Part shown: positions 14,836 to 58,887 of the stretch, one piece after another
How positions within the stretch are numbered: position 1 is the stretch's first letter
Layout: each line of letters opens with the position of its first letter
Assembly (NCBI GenBank): GCA_949751835.1
Contig: CATKHK010000050.1
Location: 124,001 to 188,000 of the forward strand
Direction: 5' to 3'
From: Blepharisma japonicum
Lineage: Eukaryota; Ciliophora; Heterotrichea; Heterotrichida; Blepharismidae
DNA length: 64,000 bases
Translations under genes and position numbers: made by a program
The notes under the pieces: model-generated
Databases searched by the model: none
Told to the model about the DNA's origin: nothing
What the model saw: only the letters and a program-made list of their open reading frames with translations

Positions 14836-15411
14836 TTATATCTTCAGCTTAGGAACAACAAATCTCTTTTCTACTGGCGGTTTTTCCTCTGTTTTCGTTT
14901 TTCCCTCTTTGGCAGCCATAAGTTCCTTTACTAGCATATCAAATTCTTGCCTTAAATTTTCAACAGTTTTTTGTGTCTCAATTCTTAAATTTTCCGCATT
15001 TTCCAATTGAGTCCTACATAAAATTTACTTTAACAGTTGTCTGAGCTTTTTATTATCTTCAGAAAGCTTGGTTATTTTTTTCTTATATTTTTCATCAGAT
15101 GGGATTCCTTTTTCAGCATGTGCTAAAATTTTTTCTGAATAATTTAGTAAAGCTTCTCTGGATTTTTCTAATTGGATTTTCAGCTGATTTCTTTCACTGA
15201 TAAGCTCTTCCAGAGATGATAAAGAAAATGAGGATTGTTTTACTTTTATTGCAATTTGGGTGGGATTTGATACTTCATTTATAGGCACTAAGGCAAAAAG
15301 CTCGATTTCTTGGGGGTTGATTCCTAAATTTTGAGAACAAAATGAGTAATATGAGGAAGAGTCTGGAAATGAATACGTGAAAGCAGGCGCAAGTAGAGAG
15401 CAAAGGGACAT
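14836..15411 (-). CDS. Small coiled-coil protein, one 15-nt intron
   Basis: 186 residues from two exons (15029-15411 and 14836-15013, minus strand). Without removing the 15-nt intron the frame ends at residue 128; after splicing the coiled coil continues (TQLENAENLRIETQKTVENL) to a basic C-terminus RFVVPKLKI. The N-terminal 65 residues are globular-looking (aromatic/Ser-rich), and residues about 70-165 are a Glu/Lys/Leu coiled coil. No family recognised. Confidence 0.7.
15014..15028 (-). other. 15-nt spliceosomal intron
   Basis: Minus strand GTAAATTTTATGTAG, with GT/AG ends and A at position 10. It contains the stop that would otherwise truncate the coiled coil, and removing it restores a Lys codon (AA|G). 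Confidence 0.8.
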
Positions 15412-16125
15412 TTTAAAGGAATTATTGAAATTAAATTTAAGTTAATTTATAGTATAAGATATACGAAGAAGAAGTTAAAAAAGTTTTAAAGTTAAGAAAT
15501 AATGAGATATTAAGATTTTTAAGCAACAATATGCATATTTTAAGTATGAAAAAAATAAAATTAAAAGTTTTAGCGTAGTTATTTGATTATTAAAAACTTT
15601 ATTTTGTTTATTATTTTTCCTAAATTCACTTCTAATCTTATCCCAAATAAAGTATATGCATTTAAATTATTCTTTAATTGTTAGCAAGTTAAATACTCAA
15701 CCTCTTCTCAACCTTTAGTATTTTTTACTACTATACACAATCAAGTATTTCGAATAGTTTACTTGATAATTTTATTGGAACAGTAAATATTCACATTTTT
15801 TTACAAACATTTTAATAAAATCAAAAATAATTTAATATTTATATTTTTACCTGACAAAAACCCTAAGCAAAATTAAGTCTTACATTAAATTGCTCGAAAA
15901 GTGCATGCATTATTCGTTTTCAATTATTCAATCAAAGATCTTTATTTTTTACTTTTATACAAACTTGTTGCTAATAATACAGACCTTAATTAAAACTACT
16001 AATTTTTACCTTTAAGCTTATATTTAGTTCATAGGAAACTAATAGCAAAATTCTATTAACCAGCCATGTTAAAAGCTGAACTTATAAATTATACGAAAAT
16101 TTTCCAGTATTAGATAGAATTAAAT
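15412..16125. other. Intergenic between divergent genes, no gene seen
   Basis: About 710 bp, very AT-rich, presumably holding the promoters of the coiled-coil gene (minus) and the C2 gene (plus). No element recognised. Confidence 0.5.
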
Positions 16126-17058
16126 ATGAACAAAATTACCATTAGCTCCGAATGCGCAAAACTGAGTTTTTCAAAAGATATTCTAACCAAAATAGATGTT
16201 CGTGTTATATATAGATTGGAATCTTCAGAAGATAAAACAGATATATGTGTAGGTGCAGGAAAGTTTCCTACCTGAAATAAAGTATGTAATCTCCAAGGGC
16301 GAGGTTCTAAGATACTTCTCCAAGTTATCGGATCAGACTCCAATGGGCCAGCACTTATCGGAGAAGCTCAAATTGATTTAAAAGAAGGTGAAAACTGGTT
16401 TGAGCTCTCTCGAAATGGGGAATCTGCAGGGCAAATTAAATTAAAAATCGCAGTTAAAAAAATAGAGGAAACTCATCAAAGTTTTTCTAACGAGACTCCT
16501 CTTATTAATCAAGGCATGCCACAAGGAATAACGGAACCACAAAGAATGCCTTTACATCAGCTTGGGCCATATGGATATCCGATGGGGTATCCAACAATGC
16601 AAAATATTCAAATTTCGCAACTACCTCAAGTTATGACTATGCCTCCAAATGGATATAGGCAAACATATAGCCAAGAAAACCCTCAGCAAATGCTATCACA
16701 GACCAGATTACCACCTCCTAATATACCAAATCAAGAATTCATGCCAATGCAAGGAGGACATATATCGGGCATTATGAGAGGCAGCACTGGGACTATCCCT
16801 ACAGCTATGCCTCCTCAGCAGGTACAAATTTGTGATATGGGCTATGATCATCAATTACCTCATTATGTTTTACCAATGCGGCAAGATTATAGCTGATGCC
16901 CTGTTTGCTATAATAATCAACAAGGACAGTTCCAATATTATCATCAACAGCCTAATTATCAATGCTACTATCAGAATCGAGCTATAAGCCAGACAAGCTC
17001 AGTTCAAGGTCCTAGTCCTGATAGGACTCAAGCTGGTGGGCGGCAAGATTGCTTTTAG
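16126..17058 (+). CDS. C2-domain protein with Pro/Gln/Tyr-rich tail
   Basis: 310 residues. Residues 1-115 look like a C2 domain: alternating beta strands, KTDICVGAGKFPTWNKV (the PxWN pattern of C2 strand 4) and a closing strand AGQIKLKIAVKK. The Trp in that PTWN motif is a TGA codon. Residues 130-310 are disordered, rich in Pro, Gln, Met and Tyr, with a short CPVCYNN patch and a final DCF. C2 domains usually bind acidic membranes, often with Ca2+; acidic loop residues are not clearly all present, so Ca2+ dependence is uncertain. Ends in TAG. Confidence 0.7.
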
Positions 17059-17264
17059 GGAAACTGATAAATGTAAAGGCTAAAATCTGAAATAAAATTT
17101 AAATAAAAATATAAGTACATATAAAAGAAGCAAGGATTCCAAATAGTGGCTGACAATAATGGAAAAAAAAATCAGCAAGGAATTTAACTGGCTAACTATT
17201 GATTAAAGATATTAAATAAATATGCTTAGACATTTATGCTTAGCTATAATTCCTAAAAATCAGA

Positions 17265-18468
17265 ATGGCTTCAGCCGAACAATATACATACGAAATCCAA
17301 AAAAAGCGGCTTGATAAAGGTAAAATCCTACACAGAAGTCCAAATGCTTGAGCATGTCACTCCAAATATAGTAACATCCCACAAGAAAAGCAGCTTTGGC
17401 TTGATAATTCGTGTAGAGCTCCAATCACCGCTATTAACAGGCCTTCCTTTCACATCCTTTTACTATGATATTCACCTCGAAGGAAAATATCCATTCCAAT
17501 CTCCTAAAGTTCTTTGTGAGACGTCATTTCCTTTCCCATCCCTATCAGATGGCAGAGATCTCTTATCAGGCATAATTAAAAGAAAATGGACTCCTAGCAT
17601 TACTTCCTTAGACGTTATTAACGCCTTACCTGCTTTTACTGCAGAATTATATCAAAAATGAACTGAAGGGCTTCAAGCTGACATAGGAGTGTTTCATTTA
17701 GGTCATCCAATGCCTCTAGAAGTATGGGAAAATAAAGAAGGAATGAAATGCTTTATGTGTGTAGAAATTGATATAAATGATGATAGAAATACTAAAGAGA
17801 AAGTGATTGTTGTGACCAATTTAGTTATTTTGCAGCTTGATGTCAACCCTGACTTCCCTATGATTGGCTATCTTACAAATTGGGCTACCTTGCCGTCCTT
17901 AAATGCAATTAACAGATCAAGAAGTGATAGAAATGTGCTTGTTTTTGACTGAAAAGAAATGGAAGAAATTCCTGCATGCAGCCAAAAATTTAATTTTTCT
18001 GAATCTGAAGAATGCATTCAATTGATAACTCAAAACATACACAAGCTAGGCACTATCATTAAAAAACAAAGCAAAAAAACCCTCCAAGAAGAAGAGGTCA
18101 AGCCAGAGCATATAAAAAATATGCACATTGATGATATTTTAGTAAAAACCTCAGAATTTGAAAATAAACTGCTGAAAGGGACAGTAAATATAGAAATTAT
18201 TAATAGTCTCGTAAATCTTTATCAGCAAGCAATTGAATATTTTTCTGCACTGAATGATGACAAATTTCAGGCATTTTTAAATAAAATGCATAAATTGTTG
18301 TCAAATCAGCTCATACAAGATGTGATGCAAGGCAGAATTAGTGAAGTTAGTGGCATTGCTGCTTTTGAAGAAGAAAAGATAGAAGAAGAAGTTAAAGTAC
18401 TTGATGAAAACAAGAAAGATGTAGAGCTAAAAGAAATAGATTCAGAACATAAAAGTGAAGATCAATAA
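17265..18468 (+). CDS. UEV-type (inactive E2-like) protein with PH-like middle domain
   Basis: 395 residues, exons 17265-17319 and 17336-18468. Residues about 5-130 follow the E2 fold: N-terminal helix KKRLDKEVQML, beta sheet ending in GKYPFQSPKVLCET, then DGRDLLSGIIKRKWTPSIT and a following helix. The HPN motif is absent and the active-site Cys position (NGxICLDIL in E2s) reads DGRDLLSGI, so it is probably a catalytically dead UEV. Residues about 140-230 (VNPDFPMIGYLTN...VLVFDWKE) look PH/GRAM-like. The C-terminus is helical and acidic. TGA-Trp at 17659-17661 and 17950-17952. Possible role in ubiquitin recognition or trafficking is inference. Confidence 0.65.
17320..17335 (+). other. 16-nt spliceosomal intron
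   Basis: GTAAAATCCTACACAG, phase 1, in the N-terminal helix of the UEV gene. Splicing joins KKRLDK to EVQMLEHV and gives the gene an ATG start; without it the ATG frame closes down within a few codons of mismatch. Confidence 0.8.
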
Positions 18469-18499
18469 TAACTATTAATTTTTCTAGGAATTATACGAC

Positions 18500-20593: not shown

Positions 20594-20999
20594 ATTGAAT
20601 TATAGAGTGATCGAGAAAAATTATTTTCATGATTAGGGTTAAGCTTGAGCAGCAAGGGAATTTTAATTGGGGCATTTAATAATAAAATTAGTAGATTTTT
20701 GATGAGCAAGCATTTTAAAAAATATGGATAAATTTAGAACCATTTTCTAATAAAATGAAATATTAATTCAATATAATACGTTGACTGATTAGTGTATCAT
20801 TTTGGACAATTAATATCATAATAATAGAAATTGTCGACTAGTTGATAAAATATTGTATTTGAAATTAATTCCTACTCAGAATAATCATTCAAAAATTTTG
20901 TGTTTATTTTTCTTTTTTCCAGTGTTGATATTTTTCCCTCTAATATGGAAATTAATAAAAATTATTTTATCACACAAATTAACCGATTAATTAATATAA
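20594..20999. other. Intergenic, no gene seen
   Basis: About 400 bp AT-rich stretch between the golgin-like gene start and the 3' end of the next minus-strand gene. It should carry the former's promoter; nothing recognised. Confidence 0.5.
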
Positions 21000-21383: not shown

Positions 21384-21466
21384 TAAAGTTTATGATGTTG
21401 ATTTTTATGATGGTAATGGGACATTAAATAGATCATCATAAAATCTAATAGATCTTTAAAGAATTA

Positions 21467-22060: not shown

Positions 22061-22261
22061 AATTTTTCATAAAATTTAGACAACCGAAAAGTGAAAATAA
22101 ACAATATAAAGTAAATTTATTTTATAAATTTAGAATAATATTTAAGGTATGATATTTCATAAATACTAACAGAATTATATTAGAGGGGTTTCAATAATAA
22201 ATAGATTTTATATATATGGATGAGCAGTGTCATTAAGCTGGGTTGTATCATATATGTTCTT

Positions 22262-22852
22262 ATGACTGATAATAAACCCTGCACACGAACACTTTATTTC
22301 TATCTACTACTATATGCTACCTGTGAAATGTATGAAATCTTATTTTCGCTAATTATCCTATTCCATCGATGATGCTATGAAAGAATTCCACGATCAATGC
22401 TTCAAACAGGTCAAATCAGTTATGAATGGTAAAATAAAATTAGCTTAAGAGTTATCCTTACGATAGCAATGACTGTTGATATACTGAAAGACTACAATTG
22501 CAATTTGTATTCCATGATCGGAATTTTATCAATTAGCTTATGTGCATTTGTATATGTGAAATATACGTTTATCATCTTATATTTTATTATCTACTTATGC
22601 TGGAATAGAAGAAATAGAGTAGTGAATCTTCAAAATAATTCACGGAACCAAAGTGATTTTGTAGGGTCATCACTTAATGAACACTTAGCACCTCTCCCTG
22701 AAGGAGAAAGATGCCCTATATGTATGGAAATAGAAGGCGGAGAAAGTGTAGTTTTACCTTGTGGCCATGGGTTTCACTTAGACTGCATCAAAGATTGGCT
22801 TACAATTAATAGAATTTGTCCTATGTGCCGAGCTCCATATGAAGATGAGTAA
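22262..22852 (+). CDS. Membrane RING-H2 E3 ubiquitin ligase
   Basis: 191 residues from exons 22262-22428 and 22444-22852. The N-terminus MTDNKPCTRTLYFYLLLY and two or three hydrophobic segments (about residues 8-35, 82-105) precede a C-terminal RING-H2: CPIC (146-149), CGHGFHLDC and CPMCRAPY, with Cys/His spacing C-x2-C...C-x-H-x2-H-x2-C...C-x2-C. A membrane domain before the RING resembles plant and protist multi-pass RING proteins that begin DN.PCxRPL. The upstream exon carries one TGA-Trp. A start at 22469 would lose the first membrane segment. Ends in TAA; QTRT2 follows 21 bp later on the same strand. Confidence 0.8.
22429..22443 (+). other. 15-nt spliceosomal intron
   Basis: GTAAAATAAAATTAG, phase 2 (TG|C), A at position 10. 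It joins an upstream membrane-segment exon to the RING exon. Confidence 0.7.
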
Positions 22853-22873
22853 ATTAACTGTATTATAATAAAA

Positions 22874-26322: not shown

Positions 26323-27346
26323 ATGTTCAAAATTAATAAAAGATGCAACTCAATAAGCTTAGCTTCCTCGTCAGTTTCAAGTGATCCACAAAAATCTATA
26401 GCTCCTAGGATGCGTGCTCGAGTTTCTTCATTTCAGAGAAACTATATAATACATTCTCGATCATATTCTCAGCTTTCAAATTCTCAAAAACAGATAACTA
26501 TGATTTCTACGATGAATTCTGAAGAAAGCCCATTACGGCAAACTCAGACATTTTCCAATGACAATCCTCAGCCATTTCATGCGAAATTTCGTTTATCATT
26601 TGATTTATCACAAAACCAGAGAATACACGATCTTTTAGGCAAAACAATAACAAAAGAGCTAGAATCATTGCCTAGCGCAGCTCATATAAAAAACCGAACT
26701 AAAAAAATTGAGAATTTAATGGTCGATTGCAAAGACCGCATAGATAAAGCTTTAGAGCATGCCTTTCGTGATAAAAATGACTATAATGAAGTAATTTTTA
26801 AAAATACCTACGAGCATCCTTTATCAAACAAATTTTTTAGTTTTATAAAAGTAGGGGACATAAAAACTGTTAGAGATATGATTATTGAAAATCCTGAACT
26901 GCTTAGAACAGTTGATTCTGTATGCATTATTTTAGACTCAGCAAACAGCCTTGCATTGGGCCTGCAGAAGAAATAATTTAGAAATGGCACAGTTTTTGGT
27001 TTCCTGCAGAGCAAATATGAAAGCTACCGATATTGCTGGGAGAACTCCAGAAGATATAGCGAAAAGACTGAACCATAAAGAAATTTATGCGTTTTTAAAA
27101 TCAGCAGCTGTAAAGGCAAGGAGAAGGAGCGTTAGAATTATGCCAGGGGCTGCTGCATATTTTGCGAACAGAGGTTATGGGATTGATATTTTGAAAATTA
27201 AAAAAAGTGATGCAGGAGTTGAAGGAAGGTTTACTAAATTGCATAGAGCGTTGAAAAAGCAGACAAAGACTATTACAGACGCATGGTCTAAAAGTTTAAA
27301 GCTTAACCGGCTAATTGAAAGGCTATTACCTGAGGTTCCTGAATAA
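26323..27346 (+). CDS. Ankyrin-repeat protein
   Basis: 335 residues from exons 26323-26919 and 26936-27346. The N-terminal 170 residues are Ser-rich and disordered. Residues about 170-250 form ankyrin repeats: FFSFIKVGDIKTVRDMIIENPELL, then TALHWACRRNNLEMAQFLVS and AGRTPEDIAKRLNHKEI. The canonical TALHWA motif is only complete after the 16-nt intron is removed, and a stop inside that intron would otherwise end the frame. The C-terminus is basic. A role as protein-interaction scaffold is inference. Confidence 0.85.
26920..26935 (+). other. 16-nt spliceosomal intron
   Basis: GTATGCATTATTTTAG, phase 0, between VDS and TQQTALHWA in the ankyrin gene. It starts GTAT rather than GTAA. Confidence 0.85.
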
Positions 27347-27433: not shown

Positions 27434-29416
27434 CTACAGGTTAAATTTAGCATTTATAAGTTCTTTTAATTTTTGGCATTTTGATGATGGAACTCCTAGT
27501 GACTTAAAAAGTTGCAAAAGCTGAGGAGGAAATCTCAGCAATAAAGAAAAAGAAAGGCTTTTAGATTGATAAAGCCCAGATAAAAGCTGTGCACTATAGA
27601 TGTTAAACTCTTCACATTCTATGATAAGTGATGATATATCATTCATATCATCAATCAAATATTCCTGAGTTTGTAGCCAATGGTCTTTGGAATTAATTAA
27701 TTTTATATATTGTTCTATAAACATCTCAATAATTTCTTCTGTCTGGCCAAATGATTCAGCAATTTCAATATGAAGCGTGCATCCAAGTTTCTCACATAAG
27801 CTACTAAAAGCAATCATTCTGCATAACCCAGACATTTCTTGTTTTCGCTCGCCGTAAAAAAATAATAAAATCGTATCAAATCTATTAATAATTTCACTTA
27901 AATTTCTGCATAGCTCTGACACTAGAGAATCTGAATATAAAATGTCAATACCACAAATCTTTATTCCTGTTTGCCAAGTAACTATGAGATCCATACAATG
28001 CATAAATTTATTTTCTGTTTCTAATGACACGAAATAGAAATTTTCTGGTGCTTTCATTTTGAGAATTAATGATAATGCTAAATCAGATGCTGAATTTGTG
28101 AAAACCTTAAAAGGCAAAAGATCAATTTGGGTTATAGGGTTTGTTTGAGAATATTCGAAGTTTAAAAACTGGCTTGAAAAGCGGACTTGCTTGCTTTGAG
28201 GAGTTTTAATCGAAGGAGATTCATAAAATAATGGGATTTGAGGGTCTTGGGGAGCTTCTTTTTCAGCGAATAGAAGTGTCTGAGGGATGAGAGGGTCAGA
28301 AGAAAAGGCATTAAATTGAGACTGAATAGTAAAAGGTTTGATTTGATCAGGAGAAGATTCTGCCAAGTGTAAAGGAATTTTAATATGGCTGTTTAAATTG
28401 TTAGATTGGCTTAATCTTTCAATGTTAGTTTGCTTTTCTTGGGTAAGTAAATGATTTATAGCTTCGTAATCAACCTTAACTGTTTCATAAGTATAATCTT
28501 TAGGGACTTCTGATTTCTTAGGTATCTCCCTAATTTGATCGGTAAATTCATTCTCTTTGGCAGTTACTTTTATTTTCTCTGAAGGTTTACTGTCAATATT
28601 TATAATTTTTGGAAGTTTGTGACTATGGGCTTCAAAATTTGGCTTTTTATATGTTTTTTTCTTCAGCCTGATATCATCGATCTGAATTGTAAATGGTTTT
28701 GGATCTAAAAGCATGCTTATATCTCAAACATTTTGGAATCGCTTTTCATTATTTTCAGTCTCAAAGCAGCTAGAGCTCCATTCAATTTTATTAAATTTCT
28801 TATTGAGTATGTCATACTTTTGACAATTTTCAATTATTGGCATTTCAACCTGCTCATAATCAATTCCTTTTATATCAAATAAGCTGGAATCATCAGCTAA
28901 GTATGGTGAGAAAAAATTTAAATCGAACTCTCTTTTTGAAAAATTGTGTTTTTCTTCATTTTCTATAAACTCACAGTAAATTTCTTCAAAAACCCTTGTG
29001 TCTCGTTGATAATTTTGGCTAAAATTACTTAGCTCTGGAGGCTCAAGAATATCATCCCATTCATTATGATTTATAGTAAAAAGATCTTTCAAAGGTTTCG
29101 GTTTGCACAAAATTTTTATGATATAGATTGCTTTTTCTCTTAAATTGTTTGAGTTTTCTTTTGGCTCATTCTTAAAGACATTTTTTAGTATTTCAATTAT
29201 AGAATGCGGTAAATATGAGTCATACTTAAAAGATATAGCTACTAACTCTGGAAATTTTATTTCATACAATCCAAAAGCTGAAAATTCAGGAACTCGACGC
29301 TTCAGATCTTCACTAAATATTTTTTACAATTTTGATATTGAATAATCTCTATCTTGCTGATTTAAACTAGAAAATTTATATTCATTTCCACTGTATCTTA
29401 GTCTCCTTATTTTCAT
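27434..29416 (-). CDS. Uncharacterised protein, possible XPF-like (SHOC1/ZIP2-type) C-terminus
   Basis: 655 residues from exons 29328-29416 and 27434-29312, one TGA-Trp at 28724-28726, TAG stop. The first 400 residues are charged and mostly disordered. The C-terminal 230 read as alternating strands and helices (FDTILLFFYGE; a helix-strand-helix around LCEKLGCTLHIEIAES) followed by a possible helix-hairpin-helix, FKSLGVPSSKCQKLKELI. That order resembles the inactive XPF nuclease-HhH core of the meiotic proteins SHOC1/ZIP2, but I see no ERK-type nuclease motif and the match is by eye only. Divergent from the giant coiled-coil gene, 75 bp between starts. Confidence 0.6.
29313..29327 (-). other. 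15-nt spliceosomal intron
   Basis: Minus strand GTAAAAAATATTTAG, phase 2, A at position 10. Splicing reveals an ATG exon (29328-29416) with MKIRRLRYSGNEYKFSS; the second exon alone has no ATG near its start. Confidence 0.75.
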
Positions 29417-37447: not shown

Positions 37448-40200
37448 CTAATTATTTAATACCAGTATAAAAAATTGTTTTATAGGGTCTTGAGTAAAAA
37501 TCTTACGATTTTGACGATGATTTTTTTTCGATTTCTTTTTTGGTGACGAATTATTAGTTTCTGAGGATTTTATTGACTTTAAGATGTCAAGTTCTAATAA
37601 TTCTGATTTATGGTCTGAGGATGCAAAAGTTTGAGAAAATTTTGTTTTATTATCGTAATTTAGAGGAATTTGCTTATCATTTGATGATTTTTGAGTTTTA
37701 CCTGATGAATTTTCTATTTGCAATACTTCTCTTTTGACTTCATTGGTATGCCATTGGTCTTTTAATAAATATTTATTCTGAATTTCTACATTATCTTTAG
37801 CTGTTGCAGCAGTTTCCATTGAAAGATGATTTGGATCTATTTTTAGTTCGGATTGAGATTCCATTGTAAAAAATTCTTTTTCGGCAAATTTCGAAGAAGG
37901 CTTTGTTTCTAAAATAACTTCTTTATTTTTTTCTGACTTTATAAAAATGCTTTCAAATTGAATATGAACTTTTAAAGGAGGATTGGATTTAGACTCAATT
38001 TTGATTATGGAAGTAGCTTCTAAAAGCAGTTTTTGAGCTCTCATTGGAAGGAAATATATTTGATTCTGGCTTTGTATTTCTAATATTGGGTGCTTAATAT
38101 TTTTAGTAGTTTTTGATGAGTCTTTATATATTTCTACAGTCAAAATTTGAGATTTGTCAATTGAAAGATTTTGTTTTCTTTTATCAACTAAAGAATGATT
38201 TTGCACTTCATTTATTTCTAAAGTCTTTAGAATTTCATTCATTTCTCCTGCAGGCTCTGCCTTGAATTTCTCAGATTTATTTATTTTAAGGTTTTCATTT
38301 TGTATGAAAATCGTGTTTATATAATTTTCTATTGATAAAAATCCTTGTAATTTTACAGCCGGCAATGCTTCAATTATAAGTTGTTCTTTATTTTTTCTGT
38401 CTATGCATATTTTTGATAATTTTTCTATTGAAAAATGATTATTATTCACTTTTAATGCTATTTTATCTTCTTTTTCGTAGCTATTTTCAATAAATATTGC
38501 TGGATTGTGGCTGATACAAAGCTGAGGCTTGATAGTTCCTACAATTTTAATTGTAGGCATAGTTTTAGTTGAAAATAATTTAGTTATACTCTTTTCAATA
38601 GAAAAAATAGGTACATTTTCAACTGAAAGCATCTCTTGATGCTTTCTTTCAATAAAAACTGCTTTAATTTTTTCAACTGACAATTCTTTTTTATTTTCAT
38701 TCTTTTCAATAGATAAAATAGGTATATTTTCAACTGAAAGCATCTCTTGATGCTTTCTTTCAATAAAAACTGCTTTAATTTTTTCAATTGACAATTCTTT
38801 TTATTTTCTTTCACACTAACATTTACTAAAGTTTCAATTTGAAGTTCGATTATTTCTTTTTTCACAAAAATTTCATCTAATTGTTTACTCATTCTTAATT
38901 TTGAATAGTCTTTAAAAGGCAAAATCTTCACATTATTCAATTTTTCTGTTATAAGCTCGACAAAGCTCAATTTCGATTCTTTCTTTTTTATTTCCACGTC
39001 AACAGTTTTAATTATCTCGTTTTTTCTTTTCATTTTTGCTTCAATCTTAATAGACGGTAAAACTTCATCACTTAAAATTGCTTTTTCTCTGACAGAGTCT
39101 ACAAAACTTTGAAACTGCCCATATTTCGATTTAGGCGAGCTGAGCACAAAAAATTGTTTTTCATCTGGAACCTCTTCGCTCTCTAATGCTTCTCCAAGAT
39201 TTTCTGTCTCAATAGTCATTGTCCTTCTTCAATCCTGCATTTTCTTTTGTCTTAAACTATTAAGATTTTCTTGATCATTAATTTTTATATCTTGCCCAGG
39301 CTCATGTGTAACTATTGTAGTTTCCATTTCGTCTTCAGCGTGATTACTATATCCTGCTTCTGACACAAAAGTGGTCCTCATTTTGTCCTTTTCATGCAAC
39401 TTTTGAAGGTTTTCAATCAAAATCTTTTGATGAATAATTTCATTTCTATAGACCTCAGACTGTTCTTGTAATTCAGATTTTTCGCACTGAAGGTTTTCTA
39501 TTTCTTGATTAGCGTCTTCTAATTCTTTTCTTATAGATCCATTCTGAAATTTCAATCTTTCTGAATTATTTTTTTCAATTTTTAGCGAGTTTTCTAAATC
39601 TTTAATTTGAAAATGAAGACCTTCTGCATCTTCTATTTGTTTTCTCAATTCTATTTGAAGTGCGTTTATCTGCTCCTGTTTTAAATCTGGTGGTAGCCTT
39701 TTAACTTCTTGGCTGGCAGCTCTCGATCTAGTGCCTTGTTCTTTCAAAGAAATTTCTTTTTTCAACATCAAAACATCTCTTTTTAGTTGTTTATTTTCAT
39801 TAACCATATCTTTGAAGCCTTGCTCAATGTCATTTAAGTCATGGGATAAGCTTTCAATTCTTTTTTCTTTAATTATGAATTCGTTTAATTGGTCTTGAAT
39901 TTGAGATTTCATTTCTTCAGTCCGAGTCTTTAATGCTTCATTTTTATATGAAACTCTTTGCAGCTTTTGATTGGTTTTTTCATAGAGTTGGTGGATTTTG
40001 AACGCGACGTTGACACACTCTTTCGCTTTTTTGTAGGCATCCGAAACTTCGGCCATGAGCTCTTCAACTATTTCTTCTGGATCTGATATAGATGTTTTTT
40101 GGGAAATAGTGGCCCTGCTAAAATAAGCGTTAAATTTTTCAAGGTGCCTTATGAGTCCAGGAATCTCTGCCTCGTTTAGTTTAGCTAAAGAACTTGACAT
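37448..40200 (-). CDS. Coiled-coil plus SIEK-repeat protein with one frameshift
   Basis: One gene of about 917 residues. Residues 1-320 are helical/coiled coil (start MSSSLAKLNEAEIPGLIRHL). The frame crosses a TGA-Trp at 39229-39231 into a long beta-like region of degenerate repeats built on hSIEK..I.hhh (LSIEKIKAVFIER, FSIEKLSKICIDR, LSIENYINTIFIQ). Near 38795-38812 the frame is lost by one base in an A-run (AAAAAG versus AAAAAAG in the tandem copy), then the downstream frame continues 448 codons to TAG. It may be an assembly/sequencing indel, a real mutation or a frameshift site. A 20-nt GT..AG segment here would also mend the frame but is longer than the other introns. Function unknown. 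Confidence 0.6.
38597..38818 (-). repeat. Tandem 111-bp coding repeat, two copies
   Basis: Two adjacent units encode KKELS(I/V)EKIKAVFIERK...EMLSVEN(I/V)PI(L/F)SIEK. They differ at few bases, one being the missing A in the upstream copy, so the duplication is recent. Confidence 0.8.
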
Positions 40201-41158
40201 TTTGGGTGAAAAAATATAAACATTTTTAAATAAAATTCGTTTTGATAATAAAATCCAAATTTACTTGAAATATAATCAAAATTTATATATCAAAATTTCA
40301 ATAAGCTTCCTTCAAGCAACAATGAGTTTATAAGTGTTTTATTAAATTTTAAAAATAACTAGTATTGATGTGATCAATAGAATACATAATTTACGTTAGT
40401 ATTAAGATATGAATAAAATTTATAATGAAATTCTAAAGTATCTTTCTTAACCGCGATTTTCTAAAATAATACATTCACATGGGCAATCAGTTTCAAAAAA
40501 CAATTATTAAGATATTTAAATTGAATTACAGTCCTATTATATATGGAAAGCATGCATCTTATTTAATCTCTTTTTAAATTAATAATGAACCTTTCTAAAA
40601 ATTAATGCTACATGTGCTTGAATAGCAACTAAAAATAACTATAGATTTTTTGATTTGTATTTTCTTCAAATCATAATTTATTAAATTATTATAAAATGTA
40701 AAAATGTAGTTTAGCATTTATAATAAAATGCTTAAAAGAAATAAAATAATGCACAATAATCAAATAATATTTTTTAATGAGTTTTGCTTAAATCAAGAAA
40801 AAATATTTTGCTATTAATAGAAAGGATAAGAAGATGCAGAAAAACTTCTTAGCATCTTTTAAAATTCCTAATCAGACTAAATGTCTTTACTAATTCATTA
40901 TATGGCTCTTAAAAGTTTTTCAGGTGGTGCTGCAGTTTTTCGAAAATTATATCTTAAAAATAAAACAGTAAAGTGATATGTTGCTAGCTGGCATAAGGCT
41001 GATGTCTGAACTAGTTTAATCAGCATTTCTTAATTAACTGGTAAGAGGTTAGAAGAGCCATGCTGATTTGCTTACAAATCTAATATTTATCCCTCAATTT
41101 GTTAACTTATTAACTTATACGATCTAAAGCTATTACTGATATAATAAATTTATTAAAT
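40201..41158. other. Intergenic, no gene seen
   Basis: About 960 bp, strongly AT-rich, all frames closed. It holds the promoter of the coiled-coil/SIEK gene at its left side and the 3' flank of MDR copy A at its right. No RNA gene recognised. Confidence 0.5.
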
Positions 41159-46500: not shown

Positions 46501-49500
46501 ATGGCAGCTGCTTGGAGAGGTGAGTATATGACCAGCTCTACACGTTCTCAAAAATATACAGGACTTTGTAACCAAGGAGCTACCTGCTATATGAATAGTT
46601 TACTACAATCACTCTATATGAGTCCTGAGTTTCGTAAAAAAATCTATTCATGGACTTATGATGAGAAAAAGCACGGGGACAAAAGTTCTTGCATTCCTTT
46701 TCAATTACAAGTTTTATTTGGAAAACTTCAAATTTCCGGAGCACCTTATATTGATACTAAAGCTTTGACTAAAAGTTTTGGATGGGATTTAAGAGAAGGT
46801 TTCCAGCAGCATGATGTGCAAGAGTTTTGTCGAGTCCTATTCGATGCTGTAGAAGAGAGTATCAAAGGAACGCCTGAGGAAAATCTTATTAACACGCTTT
46901 ATGAAGGAATACTTACTGACTACGTCAAATGTTTGAATTGTAAAAACCTTTCAAAAAGGCATGACACATTTTTGGATTTATCATTAACTGTGAGAAATGA
47001 GTTCGACAAAATTTATAACGATTCTGTTGAAACTGCATTAAGAAATTATACAAAGCCTGACAACTTAACAGGTGATAACAAATATTTCTGTTCTCACTGC
47101 GATTCCAAGCAAGATGCGTTAAAAGGCCTTTCGATTGAAAGATTCCCTTACATTCTTGTCCTTCAGTTGAAACGTTTTGATTTAGACTATAACACCATGC
47201 AAAGAATCAAACTTAATGACAAAGTAACTTTTCCTCAAATTTTAAATGCAAATCCTTATATAGGAGAATGAAAGCCATCAGTCCCTAAAACTGCACCAGA
47301 AGAAGAAGAAAAGGATGAAGAAGAAGTCAAAGAAAAGGATCAGATTTCTTTTTTCAAGCCTCCAGAAAACATTGATAACCTTGAGCTTAAACAAATGAAA
47401 AATTCTAATTTGGAGTATTTAAAAGACGATCGTGACAAAAAAGCTTTACAAATGGACCAAATGGTAAGAGATAGAATTATTAGCCATCAGACTGAAGAAA
47501 GGAAAAGAGTCCAAAGAGAAGAAATAGAAAAATATTATGTTGAAGGAGAATATGTTTATGAATTATTTTCCATTATGATCCATTCAGGGTCAGCTATGGG
47601 AGGCCATTACTATGCATATATAAAATCTTTTGAAGACTCGAAGTGGCACAATTTCAATGATAGCACAGTTACAGAAATTGAAGAAAAAGATATCAGAAAA
47701 GTATTTGGTGGAGAAACCAGCACAAAATCATGGAGCTCTAATTATTCTGCTAATGCTTATTTGCTTATGTATAGAAAAGTTTCCCCAGAAAACATAATAA
47801 AAATCGAGGATTATGAAGTCCCTTCATACATAAGAGATGAGCTTGTTAATCTGAAAAATAAAGAAACAGTTGAAGCAGCTCAAAAAGAAGAAAAATATAA
47901 AACATGGACGATAAAAGTTTATTATAAGAAAAAAGAAATCACGTTGCAAATCAAAAAAGACAGCCCATTTGGGACAATAAAAGAAGAAGCTACAAAGCAA
48001 TTTGGTATCACTGATTTTTCGCCTGAAAATATTAGAATTCGTGGGTATTCTATGTATTATGACATTTACCAAGAAGTTTATGATGAAACAAAAACAATTG
48101 AACAGCAGCAGATTTGGAACTATAAAGTCATGGCAGTAGAAACAAAAAATCCTAATGATGAGTGACTTCAATACGACCCTAATAAAATCACAGTAAGAGT
48201 AAGCTTATGAACCCCAGAAATGGCTGATGAAACCAAGTCTCTTGACGAAAAAACTTCAAATCCTAACAAAGTTCTGGTCGATAAAAAAGAAACAGTCAGC
48301 CATTTATTAAGCCTTTTAGAAGAAAAATTTGGCATCCCCGTCCAAAATCAATGCATTGTCAAAAAAAGTTATATGGGAATGACAACTAAGCCAGAATTCG
48401 TAAACTCTCCACAAAATATCAACAATTCTTTATCATATGCCAAAATTTATGAAGGAAGCGCGATATATTTAGAAAACTGTGACAGCATTGCTCACTCTAA
48501 ATGGGCTGAACAAATTGAATTGGAGTCCAAAAGATATACAATAAAATTCAACCACCCTGATGATCAGCCAAATGCCATAAATCAAATGGATTATTCTTAT
48601 TCTGTAGTAATTGACTGTAATTCAACAATGCTGCACCTTAAAGAGTCTATAGGAGAAAAATTAAAACTAACTGTAGACGAGTTTGTGATGAAGAGAGGTG
48701 GCAAACATTGCCAAGAAATAAAAGATTTATCATTAAAAGTGATTCAAGCAAATTTAGTGAATAATTCTGTTATTTATGTAGAAAGAGGGAAACCGACTAA
48801 AGCTAACGAATATAGGGTCATTTTTTCGATTGCAACTCCTGCTAAAGAAAATGATGGGGATGCGACACTTAATAGGTTCATTGATGCTTTTGATATCCCA
48901 CTAGATGCTGGGACCAATGTTTTAGACTTAAAGAAACAACTTTGTAAGAAACTTAATGATATGTATCCATCTATGGAGCTGGAAGCTACAAAAATTAGGC
49001 TGAGAGAAAAAAATACTGATAGATTATTAAGGGTTTTTAAAAATAATGATTCGCTGAGAAATTATGCTATGTACGAGAAAAAGAATGTGGCTATCCAAAT
49101 CTTGGAAGAGGACGAAGAAGAAGTTGGGCAAAATCAGATGATTGTGGTTGTAAAAAGGTGGTTCCCTTCAACTTGGGAATTATCGGCAGCAAGAGAGCTT
49201 GTTGTCAAGAAAAACTCACCTTTGGAGGAATTTGGACAAATTTTAGCTGACGCTTATGAGATCCCCGTAATTTTTATTTAGTACGAGAATTTAGAAATCT
49301 CAAAAAATAACTCAACCTGGAATTTCTTCAGAACCGACCTTAAAAAAGAAACCTTCTATAAGACCAAAAACATGCTAGGATCATTAAATCAAAGTCCATG
49401 ATACATAAATCTTGACGGCAGCTTATTTTTGTAATTCTTATTCAGCATCAAAGACTCCACTGAGCAGATAAGAGATTTAACGCCAGAAGAAAAAAAGAAA

Positions 49501-49701
49501 TACGAAAAAACAAGTTATGGATCAAGCAGTAGCTATGGAAGTGGGCAAACTTGGGTTTATAAGCCACCAAAAGAAGAATCAGTCAAAATTAAAGTGAAGA
49601 AACAAACCGTAGAAGATGGAAAGGAGCCAGATCACGATGGAATCGAAGAGAAAAATAAAGAAGATGCTGACGAAGCTATAGATATGGAAGCATTAATCTA
49701 A
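46501..49701 (+). CDS. Ubiquitin-specific protease, USP7/USP47-like
   Basis: 1056 residues, exons 46501-49266, 49282-49430 and 49446-49701. Catalytic USP domain: Cys box YTGLCNQGATCYMNSLLQ (nucleophile C29), QQHDVQEFCRVLFDAVE, a zinc-finger pair (CLNC / CSHC), QLKRFDLDY, an acidic insert, and the His box SAMGGHYYAYIK (H369) with WHNFNDSTV. After it come several ubiquitin-like segments (from about residue 480), as in USP7/USP47, and a disordered acidic tail. TGA-Trp codons include 47269-47271, 48163-48165 and 48208-48210. Without the two introns the protein would end at VIFI, losing about 130 residues. PTRH2 starts 37 bp downstream. Confidence 0.92.
49267..49281 (+). other. 15-nt spliceosomal intron
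   Basis: GTAATTTTTATTTAG, phase 0, between AYEIP and YENLEIS in the USP gene. It contains an in-frame TAG. Confidence 0.8.
49431..49445 (+). other. 15-nt spliceosomal intron
   Basis: GTAATTCTTATTCAG, phase 2, between DGSLFF and IKDSTEQ in the USP gene. It contains an in-frame TAA. Confidence 0.78.
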
Positions 49702-51759: not shown

Positions 51760-51774
51760 TTATAATCTCTTAAA
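51760..51774. promoter_or_regulatory. 15-bp divergent spacer between two start codons
   Basis: Only TTATAATCTCTTAAA separates the ATGs of the membrane protein (minus) and the RAP protein (plus). Any promoter must overlap coding sequence or be exceptionally small; the TTATAA core resembles the element before the SDR genes. Confidence 0.4.
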
Positions 51775-53031: not shown

Positions 53032-53057
53032 TATGGATAATATTTTGAAAAATAAAC

Positions 53058-54299: not shown

Positions 54300-54326
54300 T
54301 TTTTCTAATGATAATTAATTATAGAA

Positions 54327-55808
54327 ATGGAAGCAACTCGATTTCCTCCTTTTGGTATTAACCAACAATCTCCATCACAAAATAGCCAAAACTTTAACGT
54401 AAGCCAAGCCCCAAATTTGATGAATCCTTCAACGCAAAATCAATTAGGAAACTACCCTTCTCAATCTAATATCTATCCGAAGCCAGGTCAATATATTCCT
54501 GGCCAGCCTCTACAGCCTATGTCTTTAGAGCAAGGTAGACCGTATACACCAGATGGTCAATATCAACAAAACCAACAATCTTCAATGCCGCCTAACTTTA
54601 GACCTCCAGGCACTATAAATCAGTTCTCAGGAAATTCATCAGAAGCAAATCTTCCTATGTCAGGAATCCGACCTCCTTTTATTCCAATACAAGATGCTCA
54701 GCCTATAAATTCTGTTCCTATGGCTCCATCGCGCACTCTTAATCCTAACAATATTCAAGGTAACAGCTTCTCATCTCCCACTCCAATTCCTGGAAATTTA
54801 GCACCAAATCTTAGGCCTCAAACTTTTGTGCCTTCTCCTGGTATTAATCCTCCATTCTCTTCCTCATCACAACAACCTTCAGGAATCAACCCTCCCTTTA
54901 ACTCGGCTCCAGTAAATAACCCAAGTCCTCGCTTTGCTCCTTTCAGCAATCCTCCAGCAAATCCCTCAAATCTTCGATTTCCAAATTTTAATGCGCCTGG
55001 CAATAGCACTCAAGGACAGCCATTTCAGCTATCTCCAAATTTAGGCGGTTCAAGTTTTAATCCTTCTCAACCTCCAAATTTATCAGTTCCATCTCTTATG
55101 CAGCAGCCAACTCCGTCTCTTATACAGAAGCCAAATCCATCTCTTATACAGCAGCCAAATCCGTCTCTTATGCAGATGCCAACTCAAAATTATACAGAAA
55201 ACCAAGCCATCAATCAGCCATTCAAAAACTCTACTTTAAATCAGCCTTTTACTTCACCATCTTTATCACTCAGCCACTCTCAACCTTTTCTTCCAAGTAA
55301 TTCTCTTCTTCCTAACCCAAATAACCCTGCACTTAATAAAGCCCAAATTCTTCAAGGTCCTCCAATTGTAATATCTAATCCTGTAGATGGATCTCCATCT
55401 AGATGAACCTTTATTCAGTCCGGAATGAGCAAAAATTTTAGTAAATCTGAAACTGGAATAATTGAAACAGCTTTCAGAGAAAAAAAAGATTATCTTATTT
55501 TGAAATCGAACGAAGGGACTTTTTTAATTGATTTTAAAACTATGACAAGGAGGAAACTTGATGATAATTCTGAGCCGATAAATAGGGAAGGGGGAGGAGT
55601 CTCATGAAAATGGAGAAATGAAGATGGAACTTGGAGAGATTACTCAGCCGAAGACACTCAAACTATTGAGTCAGGCTATCAAAATTTCCAAAAATATGGA
55701 GGGCCCACAAGCATAATCTTAAATGGCCGTTATACAATTGATTTTTTGATGTCTAAGCAAGTTAATACGAGGACAAAATTTGATAGGGAAATTAAAAGGT
55801 ATTCATAA
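54327..55808 (+). CDS. WWE-domain protein with Pro/Gln/Asn-rich N-terminus
   Basis: 493 residues. Residues 1-355 are disordered, rich in Pro, Gln, Asn and Ser. The C-terminal 135 residues contain a WWE domain, VSWKWRNEDGTWRDY...IESGY...YTIDFLMSKQVN, and just before it a probable second WWE (TAFREKKDYLILKSNEGTF...DFKTMTRRKLD). The first Trp of the WWE motif is TGA. WWE domains bind poly- or iso-ADP-ribose and occur in PARPs and E3 ligases (RNF146, DTX); no catalytic partner domain is seen here. An ADP-ribose reader role is inference. Ends in TAA, and the convergent transporter stop is 14 bp away. Confidence 0.83.
55089..55184 (+). repeat. Four 24-bp tandem repeats in the WWE gene
   Basis: Unit ccatctcttatgcagcagcc plus four bases, encoding PSL(M/I)Q(Q/K/M)P(T/N), four copies at 55089, 55113, 55137 and 55161. 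Confidence 0.9.
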
Positions 55809-55822
55809 TATGATAAAAATTA

Positions 55823-57037
55823 TTATTCTATTAATAAAGTTTCTGCTGGTTTTATGCTTACTTTATCGTCATCTATAGGTTGACGATATATAAAAATGAG
55901 TGGAAGAAAACTAATCATCACCAAAGCCGAAATTGCTCATAATCCAGTTAAATTTGTGAGTTCATAAAAATACTGTACAGGGTAAGTGTAAATAGTCCCT
56001 AATAAATTGGCCATAAAAAAAATCATATTTGTGGTAATTGATTCCTCAATGCTTCTATCTTCTATAACAGCTGCACTTATACCTAAAGGTAAATGGCCTA
56101 TTAGCATAGCGCCAAGAAATCCAGCGCCACTTATGGAGAGTGGAAAAATGGCTCTAATGAAAGCCCAAACAACTGTAGATAAAATTGACCCAATTAAGAA
56201 TATTCTTAATGGTTTGGTGATCGAAAGATAATTTGCAACTAAATAGGTGGCAATTAAGCCTCCTATCATTCCCATCATTACCATATCAAATCCTATTCAC
56301 CCCACTTCTACAGAGCTTAGTCCATCTGGCTCTAGAATTACAAAAATAATTGCAATTACTGTATATCCTGCCCCAATTCCTGAACTGGAGCATAGGACAA
56401 TTCACATAATCATTTTATTTTTTAATGCCTTTTTGAATCCTTCTATTAAACTTTCAGATTTTTGGAATCTTGGCTCTTTTCGCGAGAAAATAATATTTAG
56501 TACAAAAAATACGCTAGCAAATATTGCATGCCATAGATTTATCAAATTCATGTCATTGAGATAAGGACTTGCTATAAAAGATGCTCCCATCCCTACAAAA
56601 TTGCTAATACTTCCTATGCTTGTGGCTAAAACCCATTCATTTTTAGGAAACCACCTTACTGCTAGAGGTGAGCAGCCTGCTAAAACAGGGGCATTCACAG
56701 AAGCTATCAAAAAGATGCCAACACAGGCCAAGGCATAATTATCAAAGGCTAAGTATTTTATTCAACATCCTATAAAGGTAAAAATCCATGCTACAATCAT
56801 TGACCAATAATAAGAAATTCCAAGTCCTCAAGATGCAAGAGGAGCCAGTGGCAGATACATCACAAGAAAACTTACTGCAAACAGGGATACTAAATCCGTG
56901 CTAACATTGTAATATTTTTCAGCAAGATCATTTACAGGAGCCAAAGCACAATAAGTGACTCCATTAATAAAGCTTACAGCAAAATAGAGAATTAGCATCA
57001 CCCAGCGTCTTTTGGAGAAATTTGTGATGATTGTCAT
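55823..57037 (-). CDS. Major facilitator, SLC49/FLVCR-like
   Basis: 404 residues, 12 predicted membrane segments, read across several TGA-Trp codons (for example 55937-55939). The start RRWVMLILYFAVSFINGVTY resembles the conserved SLC49 opening (RRW.ML..F......N), and NLADKY-like APVNDLAEKYYNVSTD and AVRWFPKNEWVLATSIGS (helix 4-5 region with RWFP) are also typical of the FLVCR/MFSD7 group, which carry choline, ethanolamine or heme in animals. The actual substrate here is unknown. Convergent with the WWE gene with 14 bp between stops. Ends in TAA. Confidence 0.82.
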
Positions 57038-57246
57038 TTTAATTTCAACAAAAATGCCACTGAGAGTAAGAGAATTTAATTATAAAAAGAGTAAGAATTT
57101 TTGAGCATATAAATTATTTTAATTAATACAAAATTAGTAATTAAACTATAAAGATAAAGATATGCATCTAAAAACAATTTGATATAAATAATATGCTTAC
57201 TATCATGATCTGTAAAGATTATTATAAATTTTTCATCAGTATTCGA

Positions 57247-57867
57247 TTAATAAATGTATCTCTTTAGAATTTTTTTGTGAAGATCACTTCTCACTGTATC
57301 GTTGATAAACCTTTGCTTCTCTTTAGGTTCTCCTCTTGCTTGATTTCTAAACATAGTTTCTTCAGTCCATTTTCTTTTCAATTGATAGCCTTGTGCAATA
57401 TCAAGCAAAGGATTTCCATTTAAAATTTCTTCTCTTCTGAATTTTTGTCTTTCAATATCTTCCTGTTCCTTTCTTTTTCTTTCAGCTTCAGCTCTTTCGG
57501 CTTTAATTTTTTCTATTTCTGCTCTAAGTGCTTCTTCGTCTTCAGAGCTCTCCTCTTCTGATTGACTTTCGTAATCTTCTGATTCTTCCTGCTCGTCATG
57601 AGCCTCACTTTCCTCTTCGCTTTGTGGATTTTCTTCAAATTTGGATTTTTCTAAAAAATATTCTTTTTCTTTTTCTAATAGCTGAGCTTTGAAATCTACT
57701 GATTTTAATTCTTCGGGGTGGCCTTGACCTTTTTTTCTTTCTTTCAAAACTGTATGCCCTGGGAGATCTTTTGAAGAGTATTGCCTGCTGGGGACCAAAA
57801 TGCGATTCCCACCTTGATCTTTGCCCCCTTGCACTGCGTTCCATGTTGGGCGATGAGCAGTTGTCAT
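57247..57867 (-). CDS. CWC15: CWC15 splicing factor
   Basis: 206 residues. The N-terminus MTTAHRPTWNAVQGG is the signature of Cwc15/Cwf15, a component of the Prp19/NineTeen-associated spliceosome; GNRILVPSRQYSSKDLPGHTVLKER continues it. The middle is an acidic disordered region (EEESSEDEEALRAE), and the C-terminus ends NDTVRSDLHKKILKRYIY, matching the family tail (NDTIRSEFHRKFMQKYI.). I use the inner ATG; an upstream in-frame ATG adds MLINK, absent from the family. Notable for a genome that splices 15-nt introns. Confidence 0.95.
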   Translation of the reverse strand: MTTAHRPTWNAVQGGKDQGGNRILVPSRQYSSKDLPGHTVLKERKKGQGHPEELKSVDFKAQLLEKEKEYFLEKSKFEENPQSEEESEAHDEQEESEDYESQSEEESSEDEEALRAEIEKIKAERAEAERKRKEQEDIERQKFRREEILNGNPLLDIAQGYQLKRKWTEETMFRNQARGEPKEKQRFINDTVRSDLHKKILKRYIY

Positions 57868-58124
57868 TTTATTTATTAACAAATTTTAAAATAAAAAGCT
57901 AATGCTAATTAATAGCTTATTTATGTTAAATTTGCAATAATTTGCCTTTATAGATTAGATATCAGAAATATGTTGAATACTTTCAAACGCAAACTCACTT
58001 AATTATTTTACTTTGCAGAGGTGTAAATAAAATCATTGTAAAAGAAAATTATCTAAGATAAATTAAGATCGTCTTTCCTATTCAAAGCTATTTTCATCTT
58101 TTCTAACTAGATAAATATTTAGAA

Positions 58125-58887
58125 ATGGTAAGTTATTACTTAGTCTCTAAATAGCAGACAACGAGAAAAGCTGGCCCAATTCATATCTATCACAGGAATG
58201 CAAGATACTCCTGCAAAGAAGTATCTGCAATCTAAAAACTGGGACCTTGAACTAGCTGTGGATGAGTTTTACAATTCAGGAGCCCAAATGCCTCGAGACC
58301 AGCCAGCACCTACAAACCAAAAGAACATTGAAAACCTCTTTGCTCGCTACAAAGGCTCCAACCCCAGTCAAATCGAAAGTGAAGGAATCGAGAATTTTTG
58401 CAGAGACTTAGGTATAGAGCCTATGGATGTCGTAATTTTGGTGATCTCTAAGTATTTTAATGCAGCTACAATGGGGATCTATACAAAAGAAGAATTTTGC
58501 AATGGCATGAAATCTCTTGGATGTGACGATGTCAACAAACTTAGGCAAAAAATACCTGAATTGAGGAGAGAACTCAATAATCCTCAAACTTTTAAAGAGA
58601 TTTATAATTATGTTTTCGCATTTAGTAGAGATACAGGGGTAAGAAATTTAGGCTATGAAACAGCTGTAGCATTGTGAAGGTTGTTGCTGACTGATAAATA
58701 CCCAATTGTTAATAGGTGGATTGAGTTTTTGGAAAGAAGAGAAAAAAAGCATGATGTCATGAAAGATACGTGGGAAATGTTTTTAGACTTTGCGGTAATT
58801 TTGGAAAGAGAAGGTCTGCAAGGCTATGATCCTAATGGAGCTTGGCCTGTTTTGATTGATGAATTTGTCGAATATTTAAGACGTTAA
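58125..58887 (+). CDS. DCUN1D1: DCN1-like neddylation E3 co-factor
   Basis: 248 residues from exons 58125-58127 (just ATG) and 58144-58887. N-terminal UBA-like domain SLNSRQREKLAQFISITG and WDLELAVDEFY, then the PONY/DCUN1 domain: IENLFARYK, GIENFCRDLGIEP, and GVRNLGYETAVALWRLLL, WIEFLERREKKHDVMKDTWE, ILEREGLQGYDPNGAWPVLIDEFVEYL. DCN1 proteins promote Nedd8 transfer from UBC12 to cullins. The Trp in AVALWRLLL, conserved in the family (YW.L), is TGA (58675-58677). Length matches human DCUN1D1 (259). Confidence 0.93.
58128..58143 (+). other. 16-nt intron immediately after the start codon
   Basis: GTAAGTTATTACTTAG, phase 0 after ATG, A at position 11. It leaves a 3-nt coding first exon. Without it the ATG frame reads MVSYYLVSK and stops at TAG. 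Confidence 0.82.

What the first reader, a model, noticed from the sequence alone, without database searches (positions are those of the whole stretch)
14836..58143. Eight 15-16-nt introns with a fixed internal A
Introns at 15014, 17320, 22429, 26920, 29313, 49267, 49431 and 58128 are 15 or 16 nt, begin GTA and end AG. An A lies at position 10 in all five 15-mers and at 10 or 11 in the 16-mers, consistent with a branch point at a rigid distance from the 3' end. Each restores a frame or a conserved motif. This is known for heterotrichs but the set is a clean demonstration.
Basis: partly seen in the sequence, partly recalled or inferred. Interest (0 to 1): 0.7.

Follow-up and report, generated by a model that had tools for sequence, protein, structure and literature searches.

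The report
Heterotrich ciliate's 15-16-nt introns, confirmed
The eight segments are real, exceptionally short introns of a ciliate, with an A at an almost fixed place that very probably serves as the splicing branch point; this is already published for Stentor and, as to length, for Blepharisma.

Summary
Observation confirmed. All eight segments are at the stated places. With TGA read as Trp, each 15-mer carries an in-frame stop and each 16-mer shifts the frame; removal joins open frames. Five junctions have outside support: DCN1, ankyrin, two in USP47_C, and the RING-gene intron at 22429, which recurs at one codon in nine paralogs and is exactly absent from a tenth. The E2-like junction is weaker; 15014 and 29313 rest on frame alone.

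The fixed A is weak evidence in the window (5 of 5 15-mers) but strong genome-wide: GTAANTTTTATNTAG (A10) occurs 432 times, the permuted A11 pattern 10 times. 16-mers occur with A11 and A10 (32 vs 13 control; 22 vs 5), so the distance is not wholly rigid. A gene-finder asked for GTA...AG placed 13 of 20 gaps at 15 nt, decoy ends 0 of 167.

Published already: Stentor lengths and A10/A11 (PMC9505925), Blepharisma lengths (PMC9942806). A lead: a second U1-like snRNA gene complementary to GUAAUU.

The parts
15014..15028 (-). 15-nt intron GTAAATTTTATGTAG, A10, phase 2, in gene 14836-15411 (protein without known domain)
   Evidence: spliced frame 127 codons + 59 aa, unspliced frame stops at once; no Pfam or PDB match, so frame evidence only; preferred a 21-nt gap with the same 3' end
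17320..17335 (+). 16-nt intron GTAAAATCCTACACAG, A11, phase 1, in an E2-like (UQ_con) gene, about 17265-18468
   Evidence: UQ_con match 15-121 begins only four residues before the junction (residue 18) and is weak (E 2e-6); the frame shift joins an upstream ATG
22429..22443 (+). 15-nt intron GTAAAATAAAATTAG, A10, phase 2, in a membrane RING gene (22220-22852)
   Evidence: intron at the same codon in 9 of 10 further paralogs, all 15 nt with A10 and an in-frame stop; absent to the base in paralog L043
26920..26935 (+). 16-nt intron GTATGCATTATTTTAG, A10, phase 0, in an ankyrin-repeat gene (26323-27346); the only one of the eight without A at position 4
   Evidence: Ank_2 match 178-255 spans the junction after residue 199
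29313..29327 (-). 15-nt intron GTAAAAAATATTTAG, A10, phase 2, near the 5' end of gene 27434-29416
   Evidence: placed by each of these gene-finder runs; no Pfam match, frame evidence only
49267..49281 (+). 15-nt intron GTAATTTTTATTTAG, A10, phase 0, in a USP47-like ubiquitin hydrolase gene (46501-49701)
   Evidence: USP47_C match (residues 22-213 of the 242-aa query) spans this junction (after residue 140)
49431..49445 (+). 15-nt intron GTAATTCTTATTCAG, A10, phase 2, second intron of the USP47-like gene
   Evidence: USP47_C match spans this junction (about residue 189)
58128..58143 (+). 16-nt intron GTAAGTTATTACTTAG, A11, phase 0, directly after the start ATG of a DCN1-like gene (58125-58887)
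   Evidence: splicing adds the N-terminal residues that align from residue 3 with DCN1-like protein 1 (8or2_F, E 4e-55); UBA_8 match from residue 6

Best explanation
The eight segments are U2-type spliceosomal introns of a heterotrich ciliate that reads UGA as Trp (probably a Blepharisma or close relative; the species was not determined). Shown from sequence: fixed lengths of 15 and, less often, 16 nt; GTA(A) at the 5' end, AG at the 3' end, an A at position 10 (15-mers) or 11/10 (16-mers), and conservation of one intron at one codon with otherwise free sequence. Inferred: this A is the branch nucleotide, so that U1/U6 pair with GUAA, U2 (GUAGUA present in all three U2 genes found) presents the A, and splicing releases a lariat of about 10 nt with a 5-nt tail. 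The spliceosome then holds both 5' splice site to branch (9-10 nt) and branch to 3' splice site (5-6 nt) almost fixed.
For:: 8 of 8 removals join open frames; a gene-finder asked only for GTA...AG of 10-30 nt placed 20 gaps in 264 kb, 13 of 15 nt (11 after removing tandem duplicates), 3 of 16, 3 of 17, 1 of 11; the same run with 12 decoy end pairs placed 167 gaps, none of 15 nt (tally). All 13 have A10 although A10 was not asked for. GTAANTTTTATNTAG 432 matches against 22 for the reversed control; the permuted pattern with A at 11 has 10 against 36; 16-mers with A11 32 against 13, with A10 22 against 5; 10 of 11 RING family members carry a 15-mer at the same codon; GTAA, A10 and AG are invariant in 10 of 10, positions 5-9 and 11-13 vary; the eleventh (L043) lacks exactly the intron. 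DCN1, ankyrin and USP47_C alignments abut or span the junctions. U2 (3 genes), U6, U1 and U5 present. Published in relatives: PMC9505925, PMC9942806, PMC11441545.
Against: No RNA reads could be examined and no branch point was mapped. With any GT...AG allowed, the length peak is less clean: 6 of 11 gaps (stricter penalty) and 7 of 16 (looser) are 15 nt, and 15014 is taken as a 21-nt gap; in the first, cruder run 8 of 35 (many at stretch ends). The U2-branch complementarity is poor (U-rich instead of UACUAA), and by hand U2 pairing over positions 5-11 would overlap U6 pairing over 4-6. 16-mers use two positions for the A. Two of the eight (15014, 29313) have no homology support. 16-mers are not clearly enriched in the run (3, against 11 over 12 decoy classes). 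The genome counts test one T-rich context only.
Confidence: 0.94

Rival explanations
1. Chance: the reader picked GTA...AG strings that happen to bridge frames.
For: The loose motif occurs 54 times in the window, so picking by eye is possible; five 15-mers sharing an A is weak on its own.
Against: 0 of 167 decoy gaps are 15 nt against 13 of 20; 432 against 10 genome-wide for A10 against A11; conserved intron position in 10 of 11 family members.
Confidence: 0.01
2. DNA-level remnants (retained germline-limited segments, assembly indels, pseudogene frameshifts) or ribosomal bypass rather than RNA splicing.
For: Ciliate somatic genomes do arise by DNA excision (PMC9942856, passages), and no RNA was examined here.
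Against: GT...AG ends with an internal A and two favoured lengths are a splicing signature; indels would have none; snRNA genes are present; in Blepharisma such tiny introns were identified by RNA-seq mapping (PMC9942856, passage).
Confidence: 0.03
3. The segments are introns, but the conserved A is not the branch nucleotide; it is a spacing or 3' splice-site element, or the branch is an A elsewhere in the A-rich introns.
For: Several introns carry further As (for example 22429 and 29313); U2 complementarity around A10 is poor (pairing judged by hand).
Against: A10 is the only invariant base between position 4 and the terminal AG in 22 of 22 non-redundant 15-mers; in 49267 and 49431 it is the only A there.
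Confidence: 0.05

Closest known systems
Stentor coeruleus 15/16-nt introns (PMC9505925, read in part; Slabodnick et al. 2017 known only through citations)
   Same: Lengths 15 and 16; GTA...AG; A10 in 15-mers; no strong G at the last exon base (G in 13 of 100 listed here; 3 of 8 in the window); the most abundant Stentor intron GUAAUUUUUAUAUAG recurs here
   Different: Stentor 16-mers have A11 in 442 of 633; here, in one T-rich context, A11 and A10 16-mers have similar excess over control. This genome reads TGA as Trp.
Blepharisma stoltei ATCC 30299 introns (PMC9942806, passages)
   Same: Predominantly 15 and 16 bp, UGA as Trp, AT-rich compact genome of 41 Mbp
   Different: This assembly is 45.2 Mb in 224 contigs against 64 telomere-to-telomere sequences in the paper; whether it is the same species was not established
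Loxodes magnus introns (PMC11441545, passages)
   Same: Very short introns in the sister group of heterotrichs
   Different: Mode 17, mean 19.3 bp, below 16 bp negligible

Membership tests
Heterotrich tiny spliceosomal introns | Length almost only 15 nt, fewer 16 nt | tested here: met
   13 of 20 GTA...AG gaps 15 nt, 3 of 16 nt, 3 of 17 nt, 1 of 11 nt; decoys 0 of 167 at 15 nt. With any GT...AG 6 of 11 or 7 of 16
Heterotrich tiny spliceosomal introns | GT(A)...AG ends | tested here: met
   8 of 8 in the window; 22 of 22 non-redundant 15-mers begin GTAA. GTA and AG were part of the search, the fourth base was not
Heterotrich tiny spliceosomal introns | A at position 10 of 15-mers | tested here: met
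   22 of 22; 432 against 10 genome-wide for A10 against A11 in a permuted pattern
Heterotrich tiny spliceosomal introns | A at position 11 in most 16-mers | tested here: inconclusive
   2 of 3 in the window; genome excess over control 19 (A11) and 17 (A10) in one T-rich context
U2-type spliceosomal introns | Major-spliceosome snRNAs in the genome | tested here: met
   U1, U2, U5, U6 found; U4 not searched
U2-type spliceosomal introns | Branch region complementary to U2 GUAGUA | tested here: inconclusive
   GUAGUA is present in all three U2 genes found; introns are T-rich at 7-9 and 11, giving only partial or wobble pairing by hand
U2-type spliceosomal introns | Absent from mature mRNA; lariat at the A | not testable with these tools
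   No RNA reads on hand; an intronless paralog (L043) stands in for one cDNA
U12-type introns | Minor-spliceosome snRNAs | not tested
   Not searched here
U1 snRNA (for L034) | Rfam U1 model at gathering score | tested here: not met
   61.8 bits against 69.5, E 6.2e-14, full model length; so 'U1-like', not U1
Heterotrich with UGA = Trp | TGA in coding frames, TAA/TAG as stops | tested here: met
   TGA=Trp joins ORFs of the window; TGA lies inside homologous frames of the RING family (4 in L040, 1 each in L036, L042, L045, L046); 167 TGA and 413 TGG in 102 predicted genes of a model that allows TGA
Genus Blepharisma | Small-subunit rRNA or other marker | not tested
   The rRNA search gave no answer; the genus is inferred from code and introns

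The most novel reading that the evidence does not exclude
The genome carries two U1-type snRNA genes: a canonical one (..ACUUACCU.., L033) and a diverged one (..AAUUACAAU.., L034) whose 5' end is complementary to AUU|GUAAUU instead of AG|GUAAGU. It keeps the U1 layout, the Sm site and the snRNA upstream element at exactly the same distance (-55). If expressed, it would be a second U1 fitted to these tiny introns, in which +5 is mostly U or A (79 of 100 listed; 19 of 22), so that 5' splice-site recognition is shared between two U1 snRNPs.
Probability: 0.1. Interest if true: 0.65.

Novelty: already known. Interest (0 to 1): 0.3.

Why it matters
These are among the shortest spliceosomal introns known (recalled; the Loxodes paper calls heterotrich introns shorter still than its own), and a nearly fixed place for the branch A limits how tightly a spliceosome can fold its substrate. 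The set here agrees with the published pattern by tests that need no RNA reads: permuted pattern counts, decoy end pairs, and an intron kept at one codon in ten family members and cleanly absent from one. The variant U1-like gene, if expressed, would bear on how such introns are recognised.

Tried and rejected
First gene-finder runs forced genes to end inside each 10-kb stretch and gave many false gaps at stretch ends (35 gaps, 8 of 15 nt); replaced by open ends and a dicodon model. With any GT...AG of 9-45 nt that model placed 11 gaps (6 of 15 nt) or, with a looser penalty, 16 (7 of 15 nt); it missed several of the eight window introns, among them 22429, 58128, 17320 and 49267, and took 15014 as a 21-nt gap. 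(GTA...AG) still misses 22429 and 58128, whose first exons are short or atypical.

Two 5' splice-site classes matching the two U1-like genes: in the 100 rows (78 distinct) with flanks listed, of 374 matches in all, -1 and +5 are not associated (T/T against the rest, odds 0.53, Fisher p 0.15; G/G odds 0.52, p 1.0; chi-square p 0.28 on the 92 rows with +5 A, G or T, the 8 rows with +5 C left out). The hypothesis got no support from this test.

A further intron search in the window gave five more weak candidates (1722, 4666, 22952, 37448, 43797), none convincing; the same filter failed to recover three of the eight (22429, 49431, 58128). Gene 37448-40200 needs a frame change near 38.8 kb; the proposed 11- or 20-nt gaps lie in a repeat and were not accepted as introns. 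Three 17-nt gaps (L020 twice, L013) were not accepted; one of them (L020, GTAAGAAATTTACTTAG) looks like an intron with an A followed by 5 nt.

PDB search of the USP47-like C-terminus alone gave no meaningful match; Pfam did.
Full report
What was checked. Five are 15 nt (A at position 10 in 5 of 5) and three are 16 nt (A11, A10, A11). Reading the window with TGA as Trp fuses ORFs into longer ones, and 102 predicted genes in 264 kb use 167 TGA beside 413 TGG codons under a model that allows TGA. In that code each 15-mer carries an in-frame stop and each 16-mer shifts the frame; removing it joins open frames in 8 of 8 cases.

Support from homology. DCN1-like protein: the ATG is followed at once by the 58128 intron; the spliced protein aligns from residue 3 to 247 of 248 with DCN1-like protein 1 (8or2_F, E 4e-55), and the UBA_8 match starts at residue 6. 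Ankyrin gene: Ank_2 178-255 spans the junction after residue 199. USP47-like gene: the Pfam USP47_C match, residues 22-213 of the query (E 1.1e-25), spans both junctions, at residues 140 and 189. E2-like gene: the match begins just four residues before the junction and is weak. The genes of 15014 and 29313 have no match (15014: Pfam and PDB; 29313: Pfam only), so these two rest on frame. For 15014 the exact 5' boundary is not fixed by frame: with any GT...AG allowed, the gene-finder took a 21-nt gap that begins 6 nt earlier.

The strongest single case is the RING gene with the intron at 22429. A search of the genome with the spliced protein found ten further loci matched over most of its length (at least residues 12-200 of 205). 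Counting the window gene, 10 of 11 carry a 15-mer at the same codon, each with an in-frame TAA and each with A10. In these ten introns positions 1-4 (GTAA), 10 (A) and 14-15 (AG) are invariant, while positions 5-9 and 11-13 vary. The eleventh, L043, runs through the same codon without the 15 bases and with no stop: a natural copy of the spliced form. One paralog (L041) has a second 15-mer with an in-frame stop, again with A10.

Is it more than chance? The bare motif is not specific (54 hits in the window), and an all-A column in five 15-mers is weak (0.337 to the fifth power, 0.0043 per column). Three further tests were run. First, a dicodon gene-finder over the window and 200 kb of C1 and C2, asking only for GTA...AG of 10-30 nt, placed 20 gaps: 13 of 15 nt (two pairs are tandem duplicates), 3 of 16, 3 of 17, 1 of 11. 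Twelve decoy end pairs placed 167 gaps, 0 of 15 nt, 11 of 16 nt and 6 of 17 nt. All 13 of the 15-mers have A10, which was not asked for. With any GT...AG of 9-45 nt the peak is still at 15 but less clean (6 of 11 and 7 of 16). Second, over the 45.2-Mb genome the pattern with A10 occurs 432 times (reversed control 22), while the same letters with the A moved to position 11 occur 10 times (reversed control 36); this tests one T-rich context. Third, 22 of 22 non-redundant 15-mers (5 from the window, 7 from the run, two of them in a weak gene model, and 10 from the paralogs) have A10.

The 16-mers. The one search run gives only 3 (decoys: 11 over 12 classes), so their case rests on homology and on pattern counts: 32 against 13 for A11, 22 against 5 for A10. 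Four of the 32 are one string on one contig (C53), perhaps a repeat. Thus 16-mers occur with the A followed by either 5 or 6 nt.

How it most likely works. U1, U2, U5 and U6 genes are present; all three U2 genes found keep GUAGUA and U6 keeps ACAGAGA. The A is most likely the branch nucleotide, giving a lariat loop of about 10 nt with a 5-nt tail, as the Stentor paper proposes (PMC9505925, section 2.1). This step is inferred. By hand, U2 pairing around A10 would cover positions 5-11 and would compete with U6 at 4-6; the T-rich middle (positions 7, 9, 11 and 13 are T in 15, 18, 16 and 17 of 22) allows only partial pairing.

What is known. Read in part: PMC9505925 (abstract and sections 2.1-2.6), which gives 8173 of 8806 Stentor introns as 15 nt, A10 in 8005 of these and A11 in 442 of 633 16-mers. 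Passages only: PMC9942806 (Blepharisma stoltei, predominantly 15 and 16 bp, UGA as Trp), PMC9942856 (tiny introns found by RNA-seq mapping), PMC11441545 (heterotrichs about 95% 15 bp, Loxodes longer), PMC10946202 (B. stoltei 4670 of 25,785 genes multi-exon). Slabodnick et al. 2017 is not held. The finding is thus already known in kind; these introns are further examples, probably of a Blepharisma.

A side lead. Besides the canonical U1 gene (L033) there is a U1-like gene (L034; 61.8 bits, below the gathering score of 69.5) whose 5' end reads CAATTACAATGG where the canonical has CACTTACCTGG. Its 5' end is complementary to AUU|GUAAUU. It keeps the Sm site (AATTTCTGG), and TCCCATAA starts at -55 exactly as in L033 (TCCCWTAA starts between -55 and -61 in 7 of 7 snRNA genes; it occurs 19 times on both strands of 200 kb). 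Against it: the model alignment carries 20 marks of non-standard pairing, against 12 for L033 (counted from the printout); there is no proof of expression; among 100 listed introns -1 and +5 do not co-vary as two U1 classes would predict; and +5 is A as often as U in the local set (10 and 9 of 22). A paper search for variant U1 and ciliates listed 12 of 44 papers; by listing alone, none of the 12 announces one in a ciliate.

Noticed in passing
L034 (G000:C17:419159-419319 +), 1501-1661, compared with L033 (C55:188702-188862 +): Second U1-like snRNA gene with 5' end CAATTACAATGG (complementary to GUAAUU), Sm site and upstream TCCCATAA at -55 kept; U1 score below gathering.
   Followed up: partly
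L009, L010, L011, L032, L033, L034, L035, upstream of each snRNA: TCCCWTAA starts 55 to 61 bases upstream of 7 of 7 snRNA genes: a likely snRNA promoter element of this ciliate.
   Followed up: partly
window 37448-40260 (-), near 38797-38826: A long gene changes frame inside a repeat; no accepted intron bridges it. Frameshift, two overlapping genes, or assembly error.
   Followed up: partly
G000:C53 (rows, e.g. 76796-77146, 47846-48218): Histone matches with several in-frame TAA/TAG on one contig, and four identical 16-mer intron-like strings on the same contig: pseudogenes, repeats or a contig of other origin.
   Followed up: no
L020 3492 and 4593 (-), L013 9391 (+): Three 17-nt GTA...AG gaps in the run; one (GTAAGAAATTTACTTAG) has an A followed by 5 nt, so rare 17-nt introns may exist.
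   Followed up: no
L036-L046 (G000:C50, C58, C40, C45, C47, C111, C12, C30, C62, C110): Family of membrane RING proteins with one intron kept at the same codon in 10 of 11 members.
   Followed up: yes
L017 6314-9002 and G000:C11 133608-149327: Likely tandem duplications that copy introns with their flanks.
   Followed up: no
window 59168-59252 (-): tRNA-Leu (anticodon TAA), the only RNA gene that ARAGORN and Rfam (gathering score) found in the window.
   Followed up: no
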